Shown: positions 8,948 through 30,349, counted from the first letter of the stretch. The stretch: 64,000 bases of DNA from Candidatus Thorarchaeota archaeon (GCA_030612005.1 JAUWOU010000004.1:1-64000); one strand, 5' to 3'. Translations and numbers: made by a program. The notes: generated by a model not told the origin, from the letters alone.

Positions 8948-8978
8948 ACACGAAGAAAGCTTCATAAAAACCCATACC

Positions 8979-10715
8979 TTACAATTGTGAGTGAACTGTA
9001 AGAGACTCCTGTGTTCCACCTTTCTCACGACTGCTGTCGCCAGCATCTGAAAGACCTGAGTCATCCAAAGAGTCGCAAGCTTTGCCCCTCTTCACTGGAA
9101 CATCGTTCCTCCGATGGGACTTGGCTTCTGTCCGCTGCATTGACTCACACGCACCAGTAGGTGTGATAGCAGTCGGTGTTTCCACAGCATTTACCATGGC
9201 AGGGTCTTCACTCCTCGCAAACGACTCAAGAGTCGCCTGGTCATAGGGGTCGGCCACGGACTCCCCTTTCAAGGCTGGTGTCCTCTGGGGGAGTGCGGAC
9301 TTCCCATGAGAAGAACGAGTCTTCCTCCGGGCTTTCAGTATGGCTCTATCTCTAGGAGTGAGCCACATCCCTAGTCCGTTCTCATTTCTCAGTGAAGGAA
9401 TGAGCATAATAAGGCGCTTTCCAATGTTGATGGCGCCATTCAGGTCGGCGTTCAGTTTTTGTCCACAGGTGGTACAGATGAAGAGGTTCTGTCTGGGTCT
9501 CTGTCCCTTGTGTCCACACTTGTGACACATGATTGACGTCCATTGCTCAGGGACTGCCTTGAACTTTTTGGGGTTGAATCCAAGGGATGTAAGCTTGTGT
9601 TCTAATTTATCACGGACTCTCGCAAAGGCCCAGCGATGGATCATCCCTCTGTACCTTCGTCCTCTATAGTTACCTTTTCGAGCAGTATTCCTGATTCCCT
9701 TCAGTTTCCCAATTGACACATAGAGGTCATATTGCCTAGTCATCTCTCTGATGTAAGCAGAGATATCTTTCACAAGCTTCTTGTCATGTTCTTTACTGAC
9801 ACGTTCGCGCTTTCCACTTAATTCCCTAAGCTGGGCAGTTGCTCTATCAGGATTTCCACCCTTGGTAATGAGTTGTTCCTTCTCTCGTTGAAGGGAAGAA
9901 ACTCTCTCATCCAAGTTTTTCATACGCTGGAGCTTGTCTGGCTGTTTCCAGTATCGAATCTGCCTGTAGCCCTTCCTTGTGAGAAGGACTGAACATGCAG
10001 CCTTGTTAATCCCAAGGTCGATGGACAATACAGCAGGGGGTTTTCCAGTAGAATCGATTTTCTCAACAGCGAGAGTCACCGTGAAGATAGCCCACCACTT
10101 CCGACGAGAATCCTTGAATATTCGGACTGTCTTGACCTCCCCCTCTTTCATCCGATTGAGATGGAAGGAGGAGATGGAGAGGGGAATCATGAGTTTGTCG
10201 TGACGCTTTCTCTCTTCAGAAACTGAATCCAAAGAATCTCTAAGCTTCAACCAGTGACGAATCTCAAGATTTGGATTATAAACCAACTTGAAACGTTTGT
10301 TAAAAGCAAAGCGTGGGATCTTCCGTGTGGAATATCCCCTAGTACGTAATGGCTTTGCACCACCCCGTTCAAGATAGCTCTGCCACATGGCAATAGCTGT
10401 ATCTCGACACTCCTGAAACTCATTTACAGAGATGTTTGGAAACCTAACTTTGAAGTCATGAGGTACATAACTTCGGTCCGCCTTTCCTTTAGAAGCAGTC
10501 AGGGTGAGTTCTTCCAATTTTGAGGTGTCAATTCTCGTTCGTTTCTTACCTGTCAGTAACTCTTCTTCACACCTTTCAATCACTCCTAGATACGCCTTGA
10601 TGACTCTACTATCTCTACCAGTTATCCGGTTGAGGCGAGTCTTCTGATTATCAGTCATCGAGTCCCATCTGATTGGAACCTTCACACTGATTATTGTACC
10701 CTTGGAGCGACCCAT
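8979..10715 (-). CDS. tnpB: TnpB-family RNA-guided nuclease homologue (no TnpA nearby)
   Basis: RuvC-I VLSIDLGINKAA; zinc ribbon CHKCG...CTTCG; RuvC-III LNADLNGAINI; RuvC-II Glu absent (SIGKLKGIR) with alternative Glu in VPEQWTS. Confidence 0.9.
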   Translation of the reverse strand: MGRSKGTIISVKVPIRWDSMTDNQKTRLNRITGRDSRVIKAYLGVIERCEEELLTGKKRTRIDTSKLEELTLTASKGKADRSYVPHDFKVRFPNISVNEFQECRDTAIAMWQSYLERGGAKPLRTRGYSTRKIPRFAFNKRFKLVYNPNLEIRHWLKLRDSLDSVSEERKRHDKLMIPLSISSFHLNRMKEGEVKTVRIFKDSRRKWWAIFTVTLAVEKIDSTGKPPAVLSIDLGINKAACSVLLTRKGYRQIRYWKQPDKLQRMKNLDERVSSLQREKEQLITKGGNPDRATAQLRELSGKRERVSKEHDKKLVKDISAYIREMTRQYDLYVSIGKLKGIRNTARKGNYRGRRYRGMIHRWAFARVRDKLEHKLTSLGFNPKKFKAVPEQWTSIMCHKCGHKGQRPRQNLFICTTCGQKLNADLNGAINIGKRLIMLIPSLRNENGLGMWLTPRDRAILKARRKTRSSHGKSALPQRTPALKGESVADPYDQATLESFARSEDPAMVNAVETPTAITPTGACESMQRTEAKSHRRNDVPVKRGKACDSLDDSGLSDAGDSSREKGGTQESLTVHSQL

Positions 10716-10819
10716 TCATTTCACCTGAGCTGATTTAAACTTCTGACCTTTCTCTTTCGAGTTCACTCCCATCTTTGTTCCCAAGAGTGGTTATGTACTC
10801 GTACTATTTTCTATTACAT
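8994..10819 (-). mobile_element. IS200/IS605-like TnpB-only element; right end near 8994 (TCTTACAGTT on minus strand), left end near 10811-10819 (ATGTAATAG on minus strand)
   Basis: Both ends have short matches to the deleted copy at ~29.82-30.26 kb; imperfect left-end hairpin GTTATGTA / TACATTAAC. Confidence 0.55.
10730..10742. repeat. CTGATTTAAACTT, 13-bp direct repeat copy 1 (AAGTTTAAATCAG on minus strand resembles BRE+TATA)
   Basis: Exact match to 10823-10835. Confidence 0.75.
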
Positions 10820-10822
10820 TAA

Positions 10823-10835
10823 CTGATTTAAACTT
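10823..10835. repeat. CTGATTTAAACTT, 13-bp direct repeat copy 2
   Basis: Exact match to 10730-10742. Confidence 0.75.
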
Positions 10836-10919
10836 ATGAAGCAAAAATACAAATTGACCTGATTCTCTTAACTAATAGAAAATAATACACTAAACGTATT
10901 GCAAACAAATTATAATTAC

Positions 10920-10928
10920 TTATAAATA
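10920..10928 (+). promoter_or_regulatory. Putative archaeal TATA box (TTATAAATA) for the three-gene operon
   Basis: TATA-like 9-mer about 25-30 bp upstream of the TTG/GTG start region at 10951-10954. Confidence 0.45.
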
Positions 10929-10950
10929 AGCGTACATACTACTAACTGCC

Positions 10951-11202
10951 TTGGTGGAACCCAAAATGAAGGAAATATGGTGTTTTCTGGATCATACAGG
11001 ATGGTTCAGAAGTGTATTAGAAGCCAATAGATTCACCTTATGGAACGAGGTAATTCTTGAACTACAGGAATATGGGGTCCACCCCAGTAAAGATGCTAAA
11101 ATATTATGTACGTCCGTACATAATAAACAAATTTCTATGTACGTGTGTACAGAGTGTACCGATTTTTCTGTACAACCGTACAGAGGAGGTATGAATCAAT
11201 GA
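10951..11202 (+). CDS. Small protein of unknown function, first gene of operon
   Basis: 83-aa ORF; stop overlaps next start (ATGA at 11199-11202); start may be TTG 10951, GTG 10954 or ATG 10966. Confidence 0.5.
   Translation: MVEPKMKEIWCFLDHTGWFRSVLEANRFTLWNEVILELQEYGVHPSKDAKILCTSVHNKQISMYVCTECTDFSVQPYRGGMNQ
11106..11121. promoter_or_regulatory. Palindrome 1: ATGTACG-TC-CGTACAT
   Basis: Inverted repeat; contains TGTAC-N4-GTACA. Confidence 0.8.
11138..11151. promoter_or_regulatory. Palindrome 2: TGTAC-GTGT-GTACA
   Basis: Centre exactly 31 bp from palindrome 1. Confidence 0.8.
11168..11183. promoter_or_regulatory. Palindrome 3: CTGTAC-AACC-GTACAG, abutting the Shine-Dalgarno-like GAGGAGGT (11183-11190)
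   Basis: Centre exactly 31 bp from palindrome 2. Confidence 0.8.
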
Positions 11203-11855
11203 CTACAACACAATTAGAGACCCATCCCCCTCTAGATGATATTCAAGAGTTCAGAAGATCCGAGTCAAACACAATCTACATCAAGAGCCCAATCGTGCAA
11301 GGAGTAGCTGGACTATTGATTGGTTCTGTCTGGCGTGTGGACTATTCTGATAGATCAATACGTCTACTTAATTCTAATCTCATATCACATCATGAGAAGG
11401 TTCCTCTTACTCCGTTTTCCATCCCTGATAGACATCTCCGTGCTGTTCGAAAGATTGGGGCGGCATTGTTCAATGTGCGACGATTTGATAGACTATTCCT
11501 TATTGACAAGACTGTTTCATCAATAGGGTATGTCGTCAATCGAGATGACGAAACTCGTCTGTTTGTAGACCGCACAGATGCTGAGTTGTATGTTTCCCAG
11601 ATAGGTGAAGGCGCAGAGATAGTGACCCAACCACTAACGAAGAAGACAACCCGTAATGCTCAGAGGAATAGTGCAGAGATTCGGACTGAGATGCTTCGAC
11701 TGATGACTCAGTTCATGACCGGGACGGGTGCATTGAGGCAACTCAAGACCCTGAAAGAAAGAGGGGTAGACCCCAAAGAACTAGAGAAGATCTGGTGTGA
11801 TGCACATGAACAAGACAATATCCCAGCTATCCTTGGGACGTTCCTCTACGAGTAA
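11199..11855 (+). CDS. Protein of unknown function (219 aa), second gene of operon
   Basis: ORF with GGAGG upstream of ATG 11199; tracked ORF start at 11145 lies inside the upstream gene. Confidence 0.75.
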   Translation: MTTTQLETHPPLDDIQEFRRSESNTIYIKSPIVQGVAGLLIGSVWRVDYSDRSIRLLNSNLISHHEKVPLTPFSIPDRHLRAVRKIGAALFNVRRFDRLFLIDKTVSSIGYVVNRDDETRLFVDRTDAELYVSQIGEGAEIVTQPLTKKTTRNAQRNSAEIRTEMLRLMTQFMTGTGALRQLKTLKERGVDPKELEKIWCDAHEQDNIPAILGTFLYE

Positions 11856-14800
11856 GGAACAGAAAATCCTAGGTATGAGGATGGTTCCGGCGCAGCCTGC
11901 AAAGGTCCTAGCTAATTCCATCTACGCAGGTTTAGCAGCTCTTGTCAGGCTTGCAGAACGACGCGTGACAAAGGACCCTGAGGTCATCCGTCTGTTCAAT
12001 GAGATCAAGCAGATGTGGAAAGAAGCATGTGCCGAGTATAAGCGATTGAAGAAGATGGGAATCCCTGACTTTTCACTGATTTTGAACATTGAGCATAATA
12101 TGAGAAAGAACTACCTTGGGATGCTATGGTACAGTACACGACCCTTTGGAAACACAGAATACAAGCGAGTCTATCGATGGAGAGAAGGGACCATCGGACC
12201 ACTCAATGAACTCCTCAACTATGCAGGGGCAGAACTGAGGAGTGTCGCAGCCAAATACTACAGCTTCCCTTTGGTGCAATATTATCAGGTCAGAGAACTT
12301 TCAGACAAAAGGGTGGATTTTGTCCACAAGAGCGTTGCACCGAAGTATCCTCCAGAGAAGGGAGTGAAGGTCTCGTGGACAGCAGCTTATCCAGGGAACT
12401 CAAAGCATCCTCTTGTCCGTGTTAGACACTCCACCCTTCCGGAGATGGACTTTATTGACATGATACGAGCTCATGTGATCGAGCTGGTCCGTCAGTGTTT
12501 CATACATAATGTTCCAAAGATGGCCTCCAGGAGGTATATTCGACTCCTCATCTATAGACTGCAACCCTTCCTGGACTGGGTGTATACTGATAGAGCTCAG
12601 GGGCGAGGAAAGTTCTGGCCAGATGCAGACAAGGTCCTTCGTGAGATGGTCCTTGAGGTGCGAGCAAGATACAGCAGGCGCTTAGGAAGGACTCCACGAC
12701 TCACCCATCAGATTGAGTCTGGTTCAAGGAAACCCTCGATGGCGGACATAGTGACTCAGATCAACAAAGCCTACAGACAGGACACTTCCAAAAAGATGAA
12801 GCAGACTACCAGTGAACTTCTGAAGTTGATGGGTTATTCTGTAGATAAGAAGAGAAAGACACTCACACTGAGAGCAGACACCTCACCTGCCATGAAAAAA
12901 GCACTTACAAAAATTGCTAAAGATATGAAGTACAAAACCAGAGAGGTCAAGGAGTTCAAAGAACCTATCAAATCTGCCCTTACTGATGATGATGCACAGG
13001 ACCTCTATGATAATATCCTCAGTCTGAGCCAGCGAGAGGGGAATGACTGGCATAGAGTACTCTTTGGAGATATGTTCCACCCCTCATCCCTGCGACAGCT
13101 TGTCTATGCTGGGGACAAATTTCTGGATGATACATCGGAATACTTGATCGCAGCTGAGGTCCCTGTGAAGAGTATCTCTGGGAGTGGACAGGCAGATATT
13201 GTGGTGTCAGTACGACGGTCCGTTGTTGGAGAAATTCTATACACCCCGATCGTGACGTTTGATGTCAAGACAAAGACTGGAATAAACTGGACTATGCGCG
13301 GAAAGCAACCGCGAACGAAGAAGGAAGACTCGCGGATTCCAGGGCTTGTTGTTCGAAAGCGAGCATTGACTTCCACTGAGTGGTCTCGAATAGTCAATAG
13401 TACACCTAGCCCCACAGAACTCTCACAACTCCAGAGCTATGAGTCTGGTCTGCTAGAAGAGTATAGGGAATTGGTGAAGCAAGATCCAGACCACCCTAAG
13501 ACCCTCTGGAAGGGAATCGTGCTATTGGACAGTGATGAGGACCGTGAAACTCTATTCACCCTCCTACCGGAACTTGTGAAATCAGTCATCAGCGACCTGA
13601 AGACTGGTCCATCCCCAGACGGACGGACCCTGTACACACTGAATTCACAAGGAGTTAAAAAAAGAGGGCAGTATAAGTTTGGCATAGTCTTGCTTCCAGC
13701 ACTGGGACCGCACCATCTGCTTAAGCAGGCAATACCCATTGAATCTATCATTGAAGATGATCCCTTCAGAAACAGGGTCAAGGATGATGTCCACTTCACC
13801 CTGTATCTGACAGTTCCCTCTGGAGGGTCTTCTGGTGAGTCTGCAGCATGGATATCGCGCAACTGGCATCTTTTACACTATCTGTCTGACCTTAGAGAAA
13901 CCTCTGAAAGACAGAATATCAAGTGGTTAGATCTGACTGGGGTACTCGCAGAGAGCGGTGTACGTCTTCAACGACTCCGTCTCGTTGGAGACCAGAAGCC
14001 CAGGAAGTTATCAAGAAGAAGGTTGGAATCCCTCCAACAGCTAACAGAAGAGATTGAATTCCATGACCTCAGTAGCAATCTCAAGGAGTACTTCTTCTCG
14101 GATGCTACCACTGCCATTGAGGAGCTTGAAGCACAGATAAGAGAGTGTATACAGCAGGCATCAGATGAGAGGTCTATTATCGTCGTAGATGGATGGCCCC
14201 AGCTTCGTAATATCATCCCCTCTCACATGGACTCATTATTGAAGACCTTAGAACATAGGATCATCGAGTGGCTGCCAAAGGAAGATGCAGAGGTCATCTG
14301 GCTTGATAGACCAGTTCCTGTCCCGATACTGTCTGCTACCTATCAGTTGCACAGGATGACTCCCCTACCTCACGACTCACCCAGATGGTTTCTCCTTGAT
14401 GAGGTCATATGGAACCTCCCGACCTCTCCCCGAAATTTTGGATGGAGAACCCCTCGAAGGGAGGACATCAGGGTCATTGCACAGGACACTCCTACCTCGA
14501 ATAAGCCAAGGGTGCTATCCTTCGGAGTTCCACACTTGAAGGGGTGGGCACGACGGTTTCGAGCAGACTCTAAGAGAGAGCGGACGGTTTCAGTGGATGA
14601 GGTGTTTGGTGATAATGAAACCTATGGGCGTGCGTTCTACTCTGCATCGTATGTAAAGGTCGGTCTTGGCTCTAGAAAGATCATACTTGATGATATCTAC
14701 AAGTTAGTACCCAGTCTGAGTAGAGTCCGTGATACACAGAAGGGGTCTTCAGATGAATCATCGAAGAATAATTCTCAATCAAAGTATAGAGTGAAGAGAC

Positions 14801-16740
14801 AGATTCTTGGAAAGACCTCATCCTCTAGGGGAATCTGGGATCGAGTGTCCTTCATTCAGCAAAATATGGAGCCTCACCGAGGTCGACTTGGCACATATTC
14901 ATCCATTGAGGATATCACCAGGGGCAAGGTCAGGAAACCCTCCCGTGAAACCCAACTAGTATCAAGAACATCACGACGACCTCCGGTTGTGCGACCAACT
15001 CCTGTAGAGTTAATAGACACAGACCAGACCCGACATGATGAGATCCTTCGTATAAAAAGAACTGTAGAGTTCTTGCTGCCCAAGTGTGATATTTTTGATG
15101 AATACTGGGAGGGTGTTCTGAAGAGTACGCTCAAGCTCTGTAAGAAGTATCAGAGGGGAGAGAATACATCTCTTGATACCTTTGACCAGCTACAGAAACT
15201 CTATGCGAAGCTTGAGGGCTCCCGAGACCTCTGGAAGGACCTCTCATATGAACGAAGATTTGGTAGCGGTCGTGAACAGATCCCTCGAAGTATACTCTCC
15301 GTAGTACGAGAAAAGCCAGAGCTCATCACTAGGTATGGGATTCCACTCTTCCTATTACTTCAAGGAGTAATGAGTGAGGACGACTCAGAGTCTTTGAAGG
15401 TCCATGTACCTACCCTTTGGAGCGCAGTGGCAGACTGGCAATGGGTGCACATGGGTTTCAACCCCCAGAATGACCAGCAGGGACTTGCACAATATAGATT
15501 TGATATTCCTGCCCTATGGTCAAATCTTCTCTGGAGAGCACAACAACTCGCCTCAGGACCTGTCAAATCTAGGCTTTTTGAGAGTCACAAGATTGGGGAA
15601 CTTATTCCAAGGGGTGATGACCAAGTGTGGCTGGTCTTTCAGGAAAAGCCAAGGAGTGAGAAGATGATTGCAGGACTCCTCACTGGAGTCAACATGACTG
15701 CTCCACTACGGGGTACTTATGAAACAGTAGTAGACCTCGGTAAACTAGCAGCTTCTGTTGATTACACCCTGGATGAGTCTTCTGATGAACGACAGACCAT
15801 CATCATCACTCGATTTGATGGGATGGACCTCCTTTGGGCAAAGCACCTGGAAGAGATTGATGATTCGGATTGGGCGCTCCTTGGAAAGATCAGATACAGA
15901 GCACCGAAGGAGGGGATAAGTGCTCCAATCAGAGGAGTCACTATCTCAGGGGTACCGAAAAAGGTCATTGAAAGAATACCATTTCCTGATGATACTGCCA
16001 TTCCCTCAGACCTCAGAGTACGAGTGGATGAGAGTCTGAAACAGATCGTGAGTGATGCAGACCCAGTTCAATCAGTGCGTATCAATGTCACTATCAATGA
16101 AGAGTCGGGTTCGTATCTCATCAATCTAGTGGGACAAAATGAGGAACTCCTAGAGGAACTAGAATATGAAACTACTGATGAGGTGATCGGTTTCTTACGA
16201 AGTCCGATGACCAGGGGCGATTATTATCAGGCAGAGGATGGTCGGCTGTATTCTTGGAATCCCCTGAAGGACGTTTCGTATGATGATGAGGTTGAAACAA
16301 CAAATGGACTGTTGAGTCTGACCTTCCTTCGGCCACGAGTGGAGAATGAGCTATTTCTCAATGGAACATATGTCCTTCCGAGGACTGCACAGGAAGTCAT
16401 TGAAAGTGAGTTGGGTGAGGAAGTCGTCATGGTGGCAACACCGGACCTGGCCCGGTATAGGAAGGGTTGGAAACGGTGCTGGAATGTCTGGTTCATGAAA
16501 TCTGATCTTGGCGAGGGAATGCGGTCAATGGAACAGGTATCCTGTACAATCTATGATATTGCATTACTCTTTGAGTGTGAGCAGATATTCGATGTTGATA
16601 TGAAGAAACACTATCCAACATGGACATCAGTCAACCATCTAGCTGAGGTCAAGATTCCAGATGAACTAATTCATCATAGTCGAATGGGACAGCATATGGA
16701 TCTCAGAAACCTCGCTGAAAAGTATGGGTTATCTTATTAG
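11797..16740 (+). CDS. Giant protein of unknown function with PD-(D/E)XK nuclease-like core; start could be 11797 or as late as ~11874
   Basis: Uninterrupted 1647-codon frame; SEYLIAAEV...GQADIVV...TFDVKTKTG...QLQSYESGLLEEY. Confidence 0.85.
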   Translation: MMHMNKTISQLSLGRSSTSKEQKILGMRMVPAQPAKVLANSIYAGLAALVRLAERRVTKDPEVIRLFNEIKQMWKEACAEYKRLKKMGIPDFSLILNIEHNMRKNYLGMLWYSTRPFGNTEYKRVYRWREGTIGPLNELLNYAGAELRSVAAKYYSFPLVQYYQVRELSDKRVDFVHKSVAPKYPPEKGVKVSWTAAYPGNSKHPLVRVRHSTLPEMDFIDMIRAHVIELVRQCFIHNVPKMASRRYIRLLIYRLQPFLDWVYTDRAQGRGKFWPDADKVLREMVLEVRARYSRRLGRTPRLTHQIESGSRKPSMADIVTQINKAYRQDTSKKMKQTTSELLKLMGYSVDKKRKTLTLRADTSPAMKKALTKIAKDMKYKTREVKEFKEPIKSALTDDDAQDLYDNILSLSQREGNDWHRVLFGDMFHPSSLRQLVYAGDKFLDDTSEYLIAAEVPVKSISGSGQADIVVSVRRSVVGEILYTPIVTFDVKTKTGINWTMRGKQPRTKKEDSRIPGLVVRKRALTSTEWSRIVNSTPSPTELSQLQSYESGLLEEYRELVKQDPDHPKTLWKGIVLLDSDEDRETLFTLLPELVKSVISDLKTGPSPDGRTLYTLNSQGVKKRGQYKFGIVLLPALGPHHLLKQAIPIESIIEDDPFRNRVKDDVHFTLYLTVPSGGSSGESAAWISRNWHLLHYLSDLRETSERQNIKWLDLTGVLAESGVRLQRLRLVGDQKPRKLSRRRLESLQQLTEEIEFHDLSSNLKEYFFSDATTAIEELEAQIRECIQQASDERSIIVVDGWPQLRNIIPSHMDSLLKTLEHRIIEWLPKEDAEVIWLDRPVPVPILSATYQLHRMTPLPHDSPRWFLLDEVIWNLPTSPRNFGWRTPRREDIRVIAQDTPTSNKPRVLSFGVPHLKGWARRFRADSKRERTVSVDEVFGDNETYGRAFYSASYVKVGLGSRKIILDDIYKLVPSLSRVRDTQKGSSDESSKNNSQSKYRVKRQILGKTSSSRGIWDRVSFIQQNMEPHRGRLGTYSSIEDITRGKVRKPSRETQLVSRTSRRPPVVRPTPVELIDTDQTRHDEILRIKRTVEFLLPKCDIFDEYWEGVLKSTLKLCKKYQRGENTSLDTFDQLQKLYAKLEGSRDLWKDLSYERRFGSGREQIPRSILSVVREKPELITRYGIPLFLLLQGVMSEDDSESLKVHVPTLWSAVADWQWVHMGFNPQNDQQGLAQYRFDIPALWSNLLWRAQQLASGPVKSRLFESHKIGELIPRGDDQVWLVFQEKPRSEKMIAGLLTGVNMTAPLRGTYETVVDLGKLAASVDYTLDESSDERQTIIITRFDGMDLLWAKHLEEIDDSDWALLGKIRYRAPKEGISAPIRGVTISGVPKKVIERIPFPDDTAIPSDLRVRVDESLKQIVSDADPVQSVRINVTINEESGSYLINLVGQNEELLEELEYETTDEVIGFLRSPMTRGDYYQAEDGRLYSWNPLKDVSYDDEVETTNGLLSLTFLRPRVENELFLNGTYVLPRTAQEVIESELGEEVVMVATPDLARYRKGWKRCWNVWFMKSDLGEGMRSMEQVSCTIYDIALLFECEQIFDVDMKKHYPTWTSVNHLAEVKIPDELIHHSRMGQHMDLRNLAEKYGLSY

Positions 16741-16795
16741 TGGTAAATCTTACATATTTTCTTACATTTTGCGTTAGTTGCTATTTAGGAATCTA

Positions 16796-16818
16796 TTATC
16801 TACGAAGAAACAGAAGAC
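16796..16818. repeat. TTATCTACGAAGAAACAGAAGAC, 23-bp direct repeat copy 1
   Basis: Exact match to 16898-16920. Confidence 0.95.
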
Positions 16819-16857
16819 TTCATAATGTCATATTTTCCAGAATATACTTGACTCCTA

Positions 16858-18033
16858 TTGCCTACTAATGTTACTCCAGAATTTGACAAGCAACGGCTTA
16901 TCTACGAAGAAACAGAAGACATAGCGCAGCGGATAATAGAATTAGAAAAACTTCTGTCTCTTGCCCCACGCCATAAGGGTGGGGAACGAATGGTAGGAGA
17001 CTACCGAAAGAAACTAGCTCAGCTCAAGGCACTATTAGAGAAAAGACGAGAGCAAGATAAAGCCAGAAAGAGTGGAGGTACAGAAGAAGGAGTCGTTCGG
17101 AAAGAAGGCGCTGGACAAGTTTGCTTGGTGGGAGTAACAAATTGTGGAAAATCAAGCATCATTAACGCTGTGACAAATGCAACTTTTGACATAGGAGATT
17201 ATCCATTTACTACACCTATACCAACTCCAGCAATGCTAACTTTGGAAGACATCAACATCCAACTTGTAGAACTACCAGGAGTGTTCAAAGGAAGTCATAA
17301 AGCAGGAATTGGCAGACAGGCTCTTGCAGTAGCTAGAAACACTGACTGTATCGCAATAATCATTGATTTGTCACAGGACATCGATACTCAGATGAATGTA
17401 ATTCTGGGTGAATTGGATGCTGCAAGAATTAGGTTGAACAAGGAGAAGACTGCTGTTAGAATTGAGAGGGTTGGTCTCGGCGGTCTCATGATCTATGGTG
17501 CTCAGAATTATCAAGGTGATATTGAAGAAGTAATGGAATATCTAAGAGCACGCAGAGTATCAAACATCATTGTCAGATTCCAGAAACCAGCCACTTTCGA
17601 ACAACTCTTGGATGCAATGGATGCGAGTGTTTCTTATGTACGCGCCATGGTAATTGCAACAAAGGGTGATTCGGAAGGATCTGAAGCAAGATTCAAAGAA
17701 CTGGAAGAAAAATACAGTACAAGATTCGATATCATTCCAATATCTGCCGAAAAAGGAGAAAATCTTGATGGAATGAGTTGGACACTCTACAACCATCTTG
17801 ATATTCTGAGGGTATACACCAAGATACCCGGACAGAAGAGGGAAAGGAAACCAATAGTCCTACCTGAAGGTTCAGTAGTTGAAGATGCAGCCGGTAAGGT
17901 TCACAAGGAGTTGTTTGTAGAACGCTTCCGGTCAGCTGTAATCCTTCGAGAAAATGACAAAATTAAACGTAGAGTTGTTGGTCTTAACTATCCACTCCAA
18001 GATGGCGACGTTCTTCAACTGGCACATAGTTAG
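16858..18033 (+). CDS. DRG/Obg-family GTPase with C-terminal TGS domain
   Basis: LVGVTNCGKSSIINAVTNA, DYPFTTPIPTPAML, VELPGVFKG; TGS-like C-terminus ending YPLQDGDVLQLAHS; start TTG uncertain. Confidence 0.88.
   Translation: MPTNVTPEFDKQRLIYEETEDIAQRIIELEKLLSLAPRHKGGERMVGDYRKKLAQLKALLEKRREQDKARKSGGTEEGVVRKEGAGQVCLVGVTNCGKSSIINAVTNATFDIGDYPFTTPIPTPAMLTLEDINIQLVELPGVFKGSHKAGIGRQALAVARNTDCIAIIIDLSQDIDTQMNVILGELDAARIRLNKEKTAVRIERVGLGGLMIYGAQNYQGDIEEVMEYLRARRVSNIIVRFQKPATFEQLLDAMDASVSYVRAMVIATKGDSEGSEARFKELEEKYSTRFDIIPISAEKGENLDGMSWTLYNHLDILRVYTKIPGQKRERKPIVLPEGSVVEDAAGKVHKELFVERFRSAVILRENDKIKRRVVGLNYPLQDGDVLQLAHS
16898..16920. repeat. TTATCTACGAAGAAACAGAAGAC, 23-bp direct repeat copy 2 (inside 5' end of the DRG gene)
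   Basis: Exact match to 16796-16818; spacing 102 bp (multiple of 3). Confidence 0.95.
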
Positions 18034-28175: not shown

Positions 28176-29597
28176 ATGGAGTCAATTGACATATTTTTCA
28201 ATGCAAAGAGTGTCGCTATTTATGGAGCATCTACGAGCCAGAATAGTGTGGGACAATCAATCATTCAGAATTTTATCAAACCTCAATATGCTGGAAAGGT
28301 CTATGCAGTCAATCCAAAATATTCACAGGTACTTGGTGTTCCCTGTTTTTCAACTCTCCAAGAAATTAAAGATCCTATTGATTTAGTGATAGTTGCAGTA
28401 CCCGCGAGAATAATACCTAGGGTGTTTGATGACATAGCAGCTAAAGGTGTCAAAGCATCAATAATCATCTCTGGTGGTTTTTCAGAAACGGGTGTTATTG
28501 GTACAGAACTTGAGAATGAAGTTGTAGCGATAGCAAAGAAACATGGAATCCGTATTATTGGACCAAATTGTATTGGTGTGGTAGATACACTCAGTCATAT
28601 TGATACATTCTTCCTGCCTGAGTATAGATGTGGTAGACCAAAGCCCAGCAATGTTGCAAATATTTCACTAGTATCTCAGTCGGGAGCTTTTGCTGCAGCA
28701 ATCGCAGATTGGACTTCTGAGCTAGGTATCGGTGTTAGTAAGCTAATTAGCCTTGGTAACAAATGCGATGTAGATGATGATGATTTGCTCTGTTATCTTG
28801 CAGAAGATAATTCTACCCAGGTCATTTGCTATTACACAGAAGGGTATGATCAGAATAAAGGTCGTACTTTCTTTGATACAGCTAGCAGAGTGACTCCTAA
28901 CAAGCCTGTAATTGTTGTAAAGTCAGGAAGGGGTCAGAGAGCGAAGGCCGCTGCAAGTTCTCACACAGGTTCTCTTGCAGGTTCAGATAGTGTTGCTGAT
29001 GCAGCTTACAAGCAGTCGGGTGTAATTAGAGTAGATAACTTTGAACATATGTTTGACACCGCCAAAGCACTGGCGATGCAACCTCCAGCAAAGGGAGATA
29101 GAGTCCTTATGATTACAAATGGAGGTGGTTTGGGTGTGATGACCACCGATGCTCTTGAAGCTCTTGAGTTAGCAATACCAACCCCATCAAAGGAACTAAC
29201 AGACATTTACAAAAAACGTCTTCCATCATATTGTGCAATAGGAAATCCCATTGATGTTGTTGGAGATGCAAATGCGTCCAGATATGATATCGTCTTCGAA
29301 GAAGCAATCAAGAGTGGAGAGTATGATATGTTTGTTGTAGGTATGCTACTCCAGACACCTAGTCTAAGCATGGAAATAACCAATGTCATTGCAAACCATC
29401 AGCGTCAATCTAGTCTTCCCTTTGTCGTGGTTTCTATGGGCGGTGGTTTCACAACTAAGGCTGGAGAGATTATGGAGTTAATGGGTGTACCAACATATGC
29501 AACTGGTGAGAAAGCAGCACTTGCAGCAAAGGGATTGGCACAATATGGTGAAATCAAATACAGAGATATATTCAACAAAACTCTTGCAAGTTCATAA
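28176..29597 (+). CDS. acdA: ADP-forming acyl-CoA (acetyl-CoA) synthetase, alpha subunit
   Basis: KSVAIYGASTSQNSVGQSIIQNF (CoA-binding), ISLVSQSGAFAAAIADW, SSHTGSLAGSDSVADAAYKQSGVIRV. Confidence 0.92.
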   Translation: MESIDIFFNAKSVAIYGASTSQNSVGQSIIQNFIKPQYAGKVYAVNPKYSQVLGVPCFSTLQEIKDPIDLVIVAVPARIIPRVFDDIAAKGVKASIIISGGFSETGVIGTELENEVVAIAKKHGIRIIGPNCIGVVDTLSHIDTFFLPEYRCGRPKPSNVANISLVSQSGAFAAAIADWTSELGIGVSKLISLGNKCDVDDDDLLCYLAEDNSTQVICYYTEGYDQNKGRTFFDTASRVTPNKPVIVVKSGRGQRAKAAASSHTGSLAGSDSVADAAYKQSGVIRVDNFEHMFDTAKALAMQPPAKGDRVLMITNGGGLGVMTTDALEALELAIPTPSKELTDIYKKRLPSYCAIGNPIDVVGDANASRYDIVFEEAIKSGEYDMFVVGMLLQTPSLSMEITNVIANHQRQSSLPFVVVSMGGGFTTKAGEIMELMGVPTYATGEKAALAAKGLAQYGEIKYRDIFNKTLASS

Positions 29598-29628
29598 ATA
29601 ATTTCCGTTGAAGATTGTAAGAAAATGT

Positions 29629-29668
29629 GTTAAATATTCATTAAGATAATAGTTTATGAATATTTGAC
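29629..29668. terminator. Long inverted repeat GTTAAATATTCAT / ATGAATATTTGAC (12/13 complementary, 14-nt loop)
   Basis: Begins 32 nt after acdA stop; terminator or element boundary. Confidence 0.5.
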
Positions 29669-29821
29669 ACTTATTAATCAAATTAGAAATCAAACAACAC
29701 CCAATCAATATCTCAATTCCCCCTTCATTTCAGTGGTATCTAAGTATGAAAAAGCTCAGAAATCTACTAAGATATTTTCTTCGTATTTAGAGAAATTGAA
29801 TGAGCTCATATACTCGCACTA

Positions 29822-30257
29822 GTATGTAATAGTATGAGAGGACTAGGTATGTGGACTAGAGCAGTTGTTCGAGGAACAACTAATCGACGTGCGCGACTGA
29901 AAGCCCGAAAGAAGAAACCTTCTTCCAAAGGGAAGTCCTTACTCTCTATAAATGAACCAACATCAGGTTCCGGAGAGTCCGCGGCTGTTCACTTTGTCCA
30001 GTTGGACCTTGTCAGTTTCTGTGATGGAACGGGTGAGAGTGATAATGACCCCGCCGTGGTAAGAACTGTGGAAACGCTCACTGTCGTTGGAAGTGATGTA
30101 TCAACATCAGTACAGGAGAAAGAAGCCAGGTCTTCAGGAGGGATACCATCCCGATGAACGTCGACAAAGCTCTTGCTAAGTTTAGCATTTTCTCGAAAAT
30201 GCTGGATGGTGGTGACACTGGCAGGAGAAGGGCGGAACATAGAAATATCTTACAGTT
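29822..30257 (+). mobile_element. Deleted TnpB-type element: left-end 9-mer plus 3' end of tnpB only; candidate orphan omega-RNA locus
   Basis: ORF 29834-30157 aligns with the C-terminus of the 8979-10715 TnpB (GLGMW...LKARKK..SKGKS...NDPAVVRTVET); nucleotide similarity continues past the ORF to TCTTACAGTT (30248-30257). Confidence 0.7.
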
Positions 30258-30349
30258 AAGAATTACTCACCATTAAATGTAGGATATAAGTTATAACCAT
30301 AAAAGGAACGGAAACTGTGGTAGCAAATAGAGCTGAGGTCTGAAAAGCG

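What the first reader, a model, noticed from the sequence alone, without database searches (positions are those of the whole stretch)
10951..16740. Three-gene operon with a ~1640-residue protein carrying a PD-(D/E)XK nuclease-like core: candidate undescribed system
Seen: TATA-like box at 10920, then three co-directional ORFs (83, 219, ~1640 aa) with an ATGA overlap between genes 1 and 2, and gene 3 starting within or just after gene 2. I recognise no family for any of the three whole proteins. They sit between housekeeping genes (TrmY, DRG GTPase) and directly beside a TnpB element, so the locus looks acquired. By eye it is also more GC-rich than its neighbours. A small upstream gene, clustered operators and a giant multidomain nuclease-like protein are consistent with an anti-MGE/defence operon or integrated-element cargo, but function is inference.
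Basis: partly seen in the sequence, partly recalled or inferred. Interest (0 to 1): 0.85.

Follow-up and report, generated by a model that had tools for sequence, protein, structure and literature searches.

The report
Giant-protein TnpB transposon in Asgard archaea
What looked like a three-gene defence operon is the right-hand part of a 7.85-kb jumping element, present in many copies in a Thorarchaeota genome, that pairs an RNA-guided TnpB nuclease with an unknown ~1,650-residue protein and inserts with one precise and one ragged end, a pattern not known for any TnpB transposon.

Summary
The three ORFs, TATA box, operators and GC rise are real, but they are not a stand-alone operon. They are the right-hand part of a 7,850-bp mobile element, window 8968-16817, that also contains the neighbouring TnpB. 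Two close relatives have the empty site. The own genome holds dozens of related copies and fragments, including miniature copies that keep the TnpB-3' end. TnpB and the giant gene are paired across Thorarchaeota and one other Asgard family. Two very different TnpB types pair with the same giant-protein family; the window's type has its catalytic glutamate moved to the Fanzor position. The TnpB-3' end encodes a covarying structured RNA (probable omega-RNA) and is the only precise end. The other end is cut at different points, is often extended by sequence copied from the target's flank, and is flanked by 2-11 bp duplications. No RVT_1 reverse transcriptase or Y1 transposase was found in the genome. 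The giant protein has RecB/Cas4-type nuclease motifs, a RecA/Rad51-like domain, and a conserved N-terminal E-H-D-D domain that may be Cas1-like (not significant). Best reading: a new superfamily of TnpB-carrying transposons that insert from one end and are mobilised by the giant protein.

The parts
8960..8967 (.). target-site duplication, left copy (CTTCATAA)
   Evidence: empty sites in G212 and G213; second copy at 16818
8968..16817 (.). whole mobile element (7,850 bp)
   Evidence: absent from the orthologous TrmY-DRG interval of two close relatives; its two ends are joined in internally deleted copies
8968..9381 (-). precise element end; probable omega-RNA scaffold overlapping the 3' part of tnpB (structured part 8968-9187)
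   Evidence: kept at 85-92% in miniature copies; pS 0.063 here against 0.56 in the rest of tnpB; 20 of 42 pairs with two-sided changes, 0/500 shuffles
8979..10715 (-). tnpB, 578 aa; RuvC-II Glu lost, Glu at the alternative (Fanzor) position E-QWTSIM-CHKC
   Evidence: NCBIfam guided_TnpB 8e-31, Pfam TNB domain, alignment, pattern D{P}G...Ex6CxxC met
10951..11202 (+). gene 1, 83 aa, accessory, unknown
   Evidence: ORF; no homologue at the other element loci
11107..11182 (.). three TGTACNNNNGTACA palindromes, 31 bp apart; probable operators
11199..11855 (+). gene 2, 218 aa, accessory, unknown; homologues in some subfamilies only (L009, L021, L024, L032, L115, L118)
11797..16740 (+). giant protein, 1,647 aa; proposed mobilising enzyme
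   Evidence: paralogues in own genome, family across Thorarchaeota, pN/pS 0.25
12064..12591 (+). giant N-terminal conserved domain (res 90-265) with near-invariant E99 and invariant H211, D218, D221; Cas1-like candidate
   Evidence: Foldseek weak Cas1; hhalign not significant
12985..13476 (+). giant RecB/Cas4-type PD-(D/E)XK nuclease domain (res 397-560): H419, E454, D467, D489-x-K491, Q544xxxY548
   Evidence: AlphaFold mean pLDDT 83.6 for res 1-1000
13489..14541 (+). giant RecA/Rad51-paralogue-like domain (res ~565-915), P-loop Lys mostly lost
   Evidence: Foldseek E 3.8e-5, prob 1.00; P-loop inspection; residue range inferred from the two models
16745..16768 (+). right-end repeats AAATCTTACATATTTTCTTACATT
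   Evidence: shared by several copies
16796..16817 (+). 22-nt filler at the variable end, identical to 16898-16919 inside the DRG gene
16818..16825 (.). target-site duplication, right copy (CTTCATAA)
29585..30294 (+). second, miniature member of the family (other subfamily), also absent from G212 and G213

Best explanation
This is a member of a previously unrecognised superfamily of TnpB-carrying transposons of Asgard archaea. SHOWN: the element is 8968-16817. Its conserved core is tnpB and, divergently, a 1,400-1,900-aa protein. One end, the 3' end of tnpB and its structured RNA, is precise and is the only end kept by all the mobile copies examined. The other end is variable, with a short direct duplication and often a patch copied from nearby target DNA. 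INFERRED: the giant protein is the mobilising enzyme. It nicks the target at a (C/A)A^T step and joins the element's omega-RNA-side end there (one-ended strand transfer). The second target strand is cut a few bases away, and that 3' end primes synthesis along the element. Copying stops at a variable point and is closed by error-prone joining with template switches into the flank. Its nuclease and RecA-like domains process and handle the DNA ends. TnpB, guided by flank sequence read out beyond the precise end, would cut empty alleles and so favour retention of the element, as proposed for IS605 TnpB. Gene 1, gene 2 and the palindromes would be regulatory accessories of this subfamily.
For: Paralogues: 40 matches to the giant protein in the own genome. 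Deleted derivatives join 8967-9381 directly to 16552-16794. Empty sites at the window locus and at about eight other insertions. Duplications of 8 (window), 11, 10, 9, 7, 8, 8 and 2 bp abut ends truncated at different points. Filler copied from the right flank in 4 of 8 insertions: 22, 12, 18 and 37 nt, 0/200 shuffles each; an inverted filler is seen by eye in L095. A^T at the precise point in 10 of 11 sites. TnpB and giant paired in 24 of 36 independent loci, plus a second Asgard family. Two TnpB lineages with opposite catalytic-Glu positions share the same giant-protein family. Purifying selection on the giant protein. Omega-RNA covariation. No RVT_1 in the own genome and in only 4 of 47 family genomes; no Y1 transposase in the own genome and in only 1 of 16 genus genomes.
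Against: No direct evidence that the giant protein catalyses insertion; no transposase fold was established, and the C-terminal half has low pTM (0.39). The genome is a 91%-complete MAG, so a trans-acting enzyme could be missing; serine recombinases and DDE transposases were not searched genome-wide. Two insertions show little or no duplication, one shows an 11-bp deletion, and one is composite (L046). Some junctions allow a shift of 1-2 nt, and I chose the A^T phase where ambiguous. The closest-relative comparisons rest mainly on two genomes.
Confidence: 0.66

Rival explanations
1. LINE-like retrotransposition: an RNA ending at the omega-RNA 3' end is reverse-transcribed at a nicked target by an enzyme supplied in trans, giving a precise 3' end, variable 5' truncation, variable duplications and filler.
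For: The insertion signature is the LINE signature; miniature copies can keep only the RNA 3' end, as SINEs do.
Against: No RVT_1 in the own genome at E 1e-3 and in only 4 of 47 family genomes, while the element occurs in 34 of them. No polymerase-like fold among the best structure hits. The giant gene would be antisense in that RNA.
Confidence: 0.13
2. Ordinary cut-and-paste or copy-paste transposon with two defined ends (Y1, serine or DDE enzyme in trans); the ragged ends are later decay.
For: TnpB elements are usually moved by such enzymes; some copies share a longer right end with TGTAAG motifs.
Against: Duplications abut the truncated ends, so truncation happened at insertion; duplication length varies; no Y1 in the genome; IS605 and IS607 make no duplications (PMC6188088 for IS607; IS605 from general knowledge).
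Confidence: 0.07
3. The giant protein is not the mobiliser but a TnpB partner or element-protection factor (e.g. processing TnpB breaks for recombination with a sister copy); insertion is done by an unseen factor or by capture at breaks.
For: RecB-like nuclease plus RecA-like domain, and a Rad51-like gene in one subfamily, suit recombination work.
Against: Precise end and A^T target preference argue against passive capture; the giant protein is the only constant companion across two TnpB lineages.
Confidence: 0.17
4. Acquired anti-MGE/defence operon.
For: Large nuclease protein, small upstream gene, operators, acquired position.
Against: The unit includes TnpB and has transposon ends; multi-copy with miniature derivatives; no PADLOC match; genes 1 and 2 are not conserved with the giant protein.
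Confidence: 0.03

Closest known systems
IS200/IS605 and IS607 TnpB elements
   Same: TnpB with its guide-RNA scaffold in the 3' end of the gene and the precise element end; minimal non-autonomous derivatives
   Different: No TnpA; giant protein instead; duplications; one ragged end; single-end requirement
Pro-Fanzor / Fanzor RNA-guided nucleases (PMC10711439)
   Same: Alternative catalytic Glu (E-x6-CxxC) in the window-type TnpB; matches the paper's D{P}G pattern
   Different: DLG, not DPG, at RuvC-I; archaeal; not in an IS607 or eukaryotic transposon
Aloposons (Heimdallarchaeum, PMC8813620)
   Same: Asgard mobile element with a very large protein
   Different: Aloposons carry tandem 3,000-6,000-aa proteins and a MinD/ParA gene and sit in tRNA genes; this one has a single 1,400-1,900-aa protein plus TnpB and general A^T targets
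Non-LTR retrotransposons (LINE/SINE)
   Same: One precise end, variable truncation, variable duplications, fillers, parasites keeping one end
   Different: No reverse transcriptase found; TnpB and giant protein instead
Casposons / Cas1-Cas4 modules
   Same: RecB/Cas4-type nuclease motifs; N-terminal E-H-D-D domain with Cas1-like motif order
   Different: No significant Cas1 profile match; no conventional inverted terminal repeats; duplication length not fixed

Membership tests
IS200/IS605 | TnpB with omega-RNA at the element end | tested here: met
IS200/IS605 | Y1 (HUH) TnpA in the element or genome | tested here: not met
   no TnpA ORF in 8968-16817; PF01797 absent from own genome
IS200/IS605 | no target-site duplication, two precise ends | tested here: not met
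IS607 | serine recombinase TnpA in the element | tested here: not met
   no Pfam or NCBIfam match to a recombinase in the element's proteins
Pro-Fanzor TnpB | alternative Glu, Ex6CxxC | tested here: met
   alignment
Pro-Fanzor TnpB | DPG at RuvC-I | tested here: not met
   DLG at 233
RecB/Cas4-type PD-(D/E)XK nuclease | H, GxxD, (D/E)xK, QxxxY in order, conserved | tested here: met
   activity not tested
RecA/Rad51 superfamily | RecA fold | tested here: met
   Foldseek E 3.8e-5 to Rad51 paralogues
RecA/Rad51 superfamily | Walker A lysine | tested here: not met
   GES in the window; GK only in 6 of 35 rows
Cas1 integrase / casposon | significant sequence or fold match to Cas1 | tested here: inconclusive
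   hhalign P 0.04-0.09, 7/100 column shuffles as good; Foldseek E 0.1, prob 0.63; none by PDB profile
Non-LTR retrotransposon | reverse transcriptase | tested here: not met
Aloposon | tandem 3,000-6,000-aa genes, ParA/MinD gene, tRNA-gene target | tested here: not met
   definition from PMC8813620
Known defence system | PADLOC model match | tested here: not met

The most novel reading that the evidence does not exclude
The giant protein's N-terminal domain is a divergent Cas1-type integrase (E99-H211-D218/D221) fused to a Cas4-type nuclease and a RecA-like domain. The element inserts by Cas1-like half-site integration of its omega-RNA end followed by target-primed copying. It would then be a living transposon that already joins the parts of type V CRISPR (Cas1-like, Cas4-like, Cas12 ancestor), independently or as a relative of that ancestor.
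Probability: 0.25. Interest if true: 0.97.

Novelty: categorically new. Interest (0 to 1): 0.87.

Why it matters
TnpB elements are the source of Cas12 and Fanzor, and until now are known mainly with two transposase types. A third, abundant kind in Asgard archaea, with an unrelated giant protein and a one-ended insertion mode that seems to need only the guide-RNA end, would add a new transposition chemistry in prokaryotes. It would also show how TnpB is handed between transposases, how its active-site glutamate moved, and offer candidate enzymes that place DNA next to an RNA-guided nuclease. It also shows LINE/SINE-like genome structure in archaea close to eukaryotes.

Tried and rejected
Pfam, NCBIfam, PADLOC, PHROGs and PDB sequence searches of the giant protein: nothing significant. 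IMG/VR, PLSDB and phage searches: no relative. Aloposon identity: rejected on definition. Rfam: no omega-RNA family match. Retrotransposon: signature fits but no RT. Cas1: motif order fits by eye and in hhalign's own alignment, but controls are not beaten clearly, so kept only as a candidate. The search for related loci with the widest alignment failed; a narrower one worked. Simple within-genome word search for duplications worked only for a minority of copies; empty sites in relatives resolved most of the rest.

Full report
WHAT IS THERE. The 'operators' are three perfect TGTAC-N4-GTACA palindromes exactly 31 bp apart. None of the three proteins matches Pfam, NCBIfam or PADLOC, and the two larger ones match no PHROG. 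The giant protein matches no PDB sequence.

IT IS A MOBILE ELEMENT, AND TNPB BELONGS TO IT. The giant protein has 40 matches in the own genome. Short copies there join window 8967-9381 (the TnpB 3' side) directly to 16552-16794 (the giant gene's 3' end and tail), with the same internal junction. The whole-genome search with that left end finds about 17 closely related ends and a second, more distant set. In two close relatives (G212, G213; 91-93% DNA identity over the flanks) the TrmY-DRG interval is empty, reading GAAGAAAGCTTCATAA^TGCAATATTTTCC in G212. The element is therefore 8968-16817, flanked by CTTCATAA (8960 and 16818).

CONSERVED CORE. In the own genome and in 24 of 36 independent loci of a GTDB-wide pattern scan, TnpB lies divergently just upstream of the giant gene; several of the remainder are cut off at contig ends. 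One subfamily has the order giant - Rad51-like - gene 2 - TnpB. The pair also occurs in a second Asgard family whose contig is labelled Heimdallarchaeota. In a scan of 232 genomes of the phylum, 37 have it, all in these two families. Genes 1 and 2 are accessories. Two TnpB lineages (about 18% identical) pair with the same giant-protein family. One (L015 type, about 715 aa) has the standard RuvC-II FEDL glutamate. The other (window type) has lost it and has Glu at the alternative E-x6-CxxC position. The window TnpB matches the D{P}G...Ex6CxxC search pattern of PMC10711439.

THE PRECISE END IS A GUIDE-RNA SCAFFOLD. Synonymous divergence between the window TnpB and its 84% copy falls from 0.56 (aa 1-440) to 0.063 (aa 441-578), where pN/pS exceeds 1; miniature copies also show pN/pS near 1. 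So the DNA or RNA, not the protein, is under constraint. Fifteen ends from both subfamilies share a fold in which 20 of 42 pairs show two-sided changes. The covariation score is 0.40 against 0.22 in shuffles (0/500), and slid structures fail. The terminal GGTT of the element pairs inside this fold. That it is expressed and bound by TnpB as a guide RNA is inferred from the known TnpB arrangement, not shown.

ONE PRECISE END, ONE RAGGED END. All copies start at the same base (within a nucleotide or two), and the other end differs. With empty sites or flank words, the duplications are 8 (window), 11 (L041), 10 (L042), 9 (L044), 7 (L047), 8 (L049), 8 (L095) and 2 (L046, composite) bp. They abut ends cut at different points, so the cuts happened at insertion. 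L092 and L043 are unclear, and the second element in the window lost 11 bp of target. In four of eight cases the ragged end carries a patch copied from the neighbouring target DNA, same orientation, 0/200 shuffles each: window 22 nt (source 16898 in DRG), L041 12 nt, L042 18 nt, L043 37 nt. L095 shows an inverted one by eye. The precise point is A^T in 10 of 11 sites; this count is favoured by my choice of phase where the junction was ambiguous. L046 and L049 lack most or all of the right end, so one end seems enough in cis.

WHO MOVES IT? There is no RVT_1 reverse transcriptase in the own genome, and it is found in only 4 of 47 family genomes. There is no Y1 transposase in the own genome. The giant protein is under purifying selection (pN/pS 0.25; 0.18-0.20 in the three N-terminal domains). 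Its model for residues 1-1000 is good (pLDDT 83.6, pTM 0.83). Residues 397-560 carry the RecB/Cas4 nuclease set H419, D467, D489-x-K491, Q544xxxY548 in essentially all homologues. The region around 565-915 has a RecA fold closest to Rad51 paralogues (E 3.8e-5), with the P-loop lysine mostly lost. The most conserved part is residues 90-265, with near-invariant E99 and invariant R103, H211, D218, D221 and R224. The order of its motifs resembles Cas1, and a weak Foldseek Cas1 hit exists, but profile comparison is not significant. I treat this as a lead only.

MECHANISM. The most economical scheme is one-ended: the giant protein joins the omega-RNA-side end to a nicked A^T target; the second strand is cut 2-11 bp away and primes copying of the element; copying stops anywhere and the end is closed with template switches into the flank. 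This is inference. LINE-like copying from RNA gives the same footprint and is kept as the first rival. TnpB would then cut empty alleles: in the empty site the guide-matching DNA is preceded by (C/A)A, a possible TAM, while the filled site lacks it.

NOVELTY. No paper in the searched library describes it. The library lacks bioRxiv preprints and most subscription journals, so prior description elsewhere cannot be excluded. Aloposons differ in every defining feature tested.

Noticed in passing
window 29585-30294: A second, miniature member of the other subfamily, upstream of a gene, absent from G212 and G213, with an 11-bp target deletion instead of a duplication.
   Followed up: partly
window 11107-11182: Three perfect TGTACNNNNGTACA palindromes with exact 31-bp spacing at the end of gene 1; likely regulator sites. 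The TnpB-giant gap of L115 and L118 also holds several GTAC sites.
   Followed up: partly
L021:10080-11078: Rad51/RadA-like gene (PF08423, 5e-21) directly downstream of the giant gene in one subfamily, conserved in L133, L139, L140 and L141.
   Followed up: partly
window 10740-10800 and upstream of TnpB in L092, L094, L095: Conserved motif GTACGAGTACATAACC-N-GGGAGTGAACTC upstream of tnpB, an imperfect inverted repeat of the precise end (GGTTCACTC...GGTTAT); TnpB-only copies L092 and L095 are truncated a few hundred bases upstream of it.
   Followed up: no
L046 (C8:45.7-46.3 kb): Composite insertion with precise ends of two subfamilies in inverted orientation and only a 2-bp duplication.
   Followed up: no
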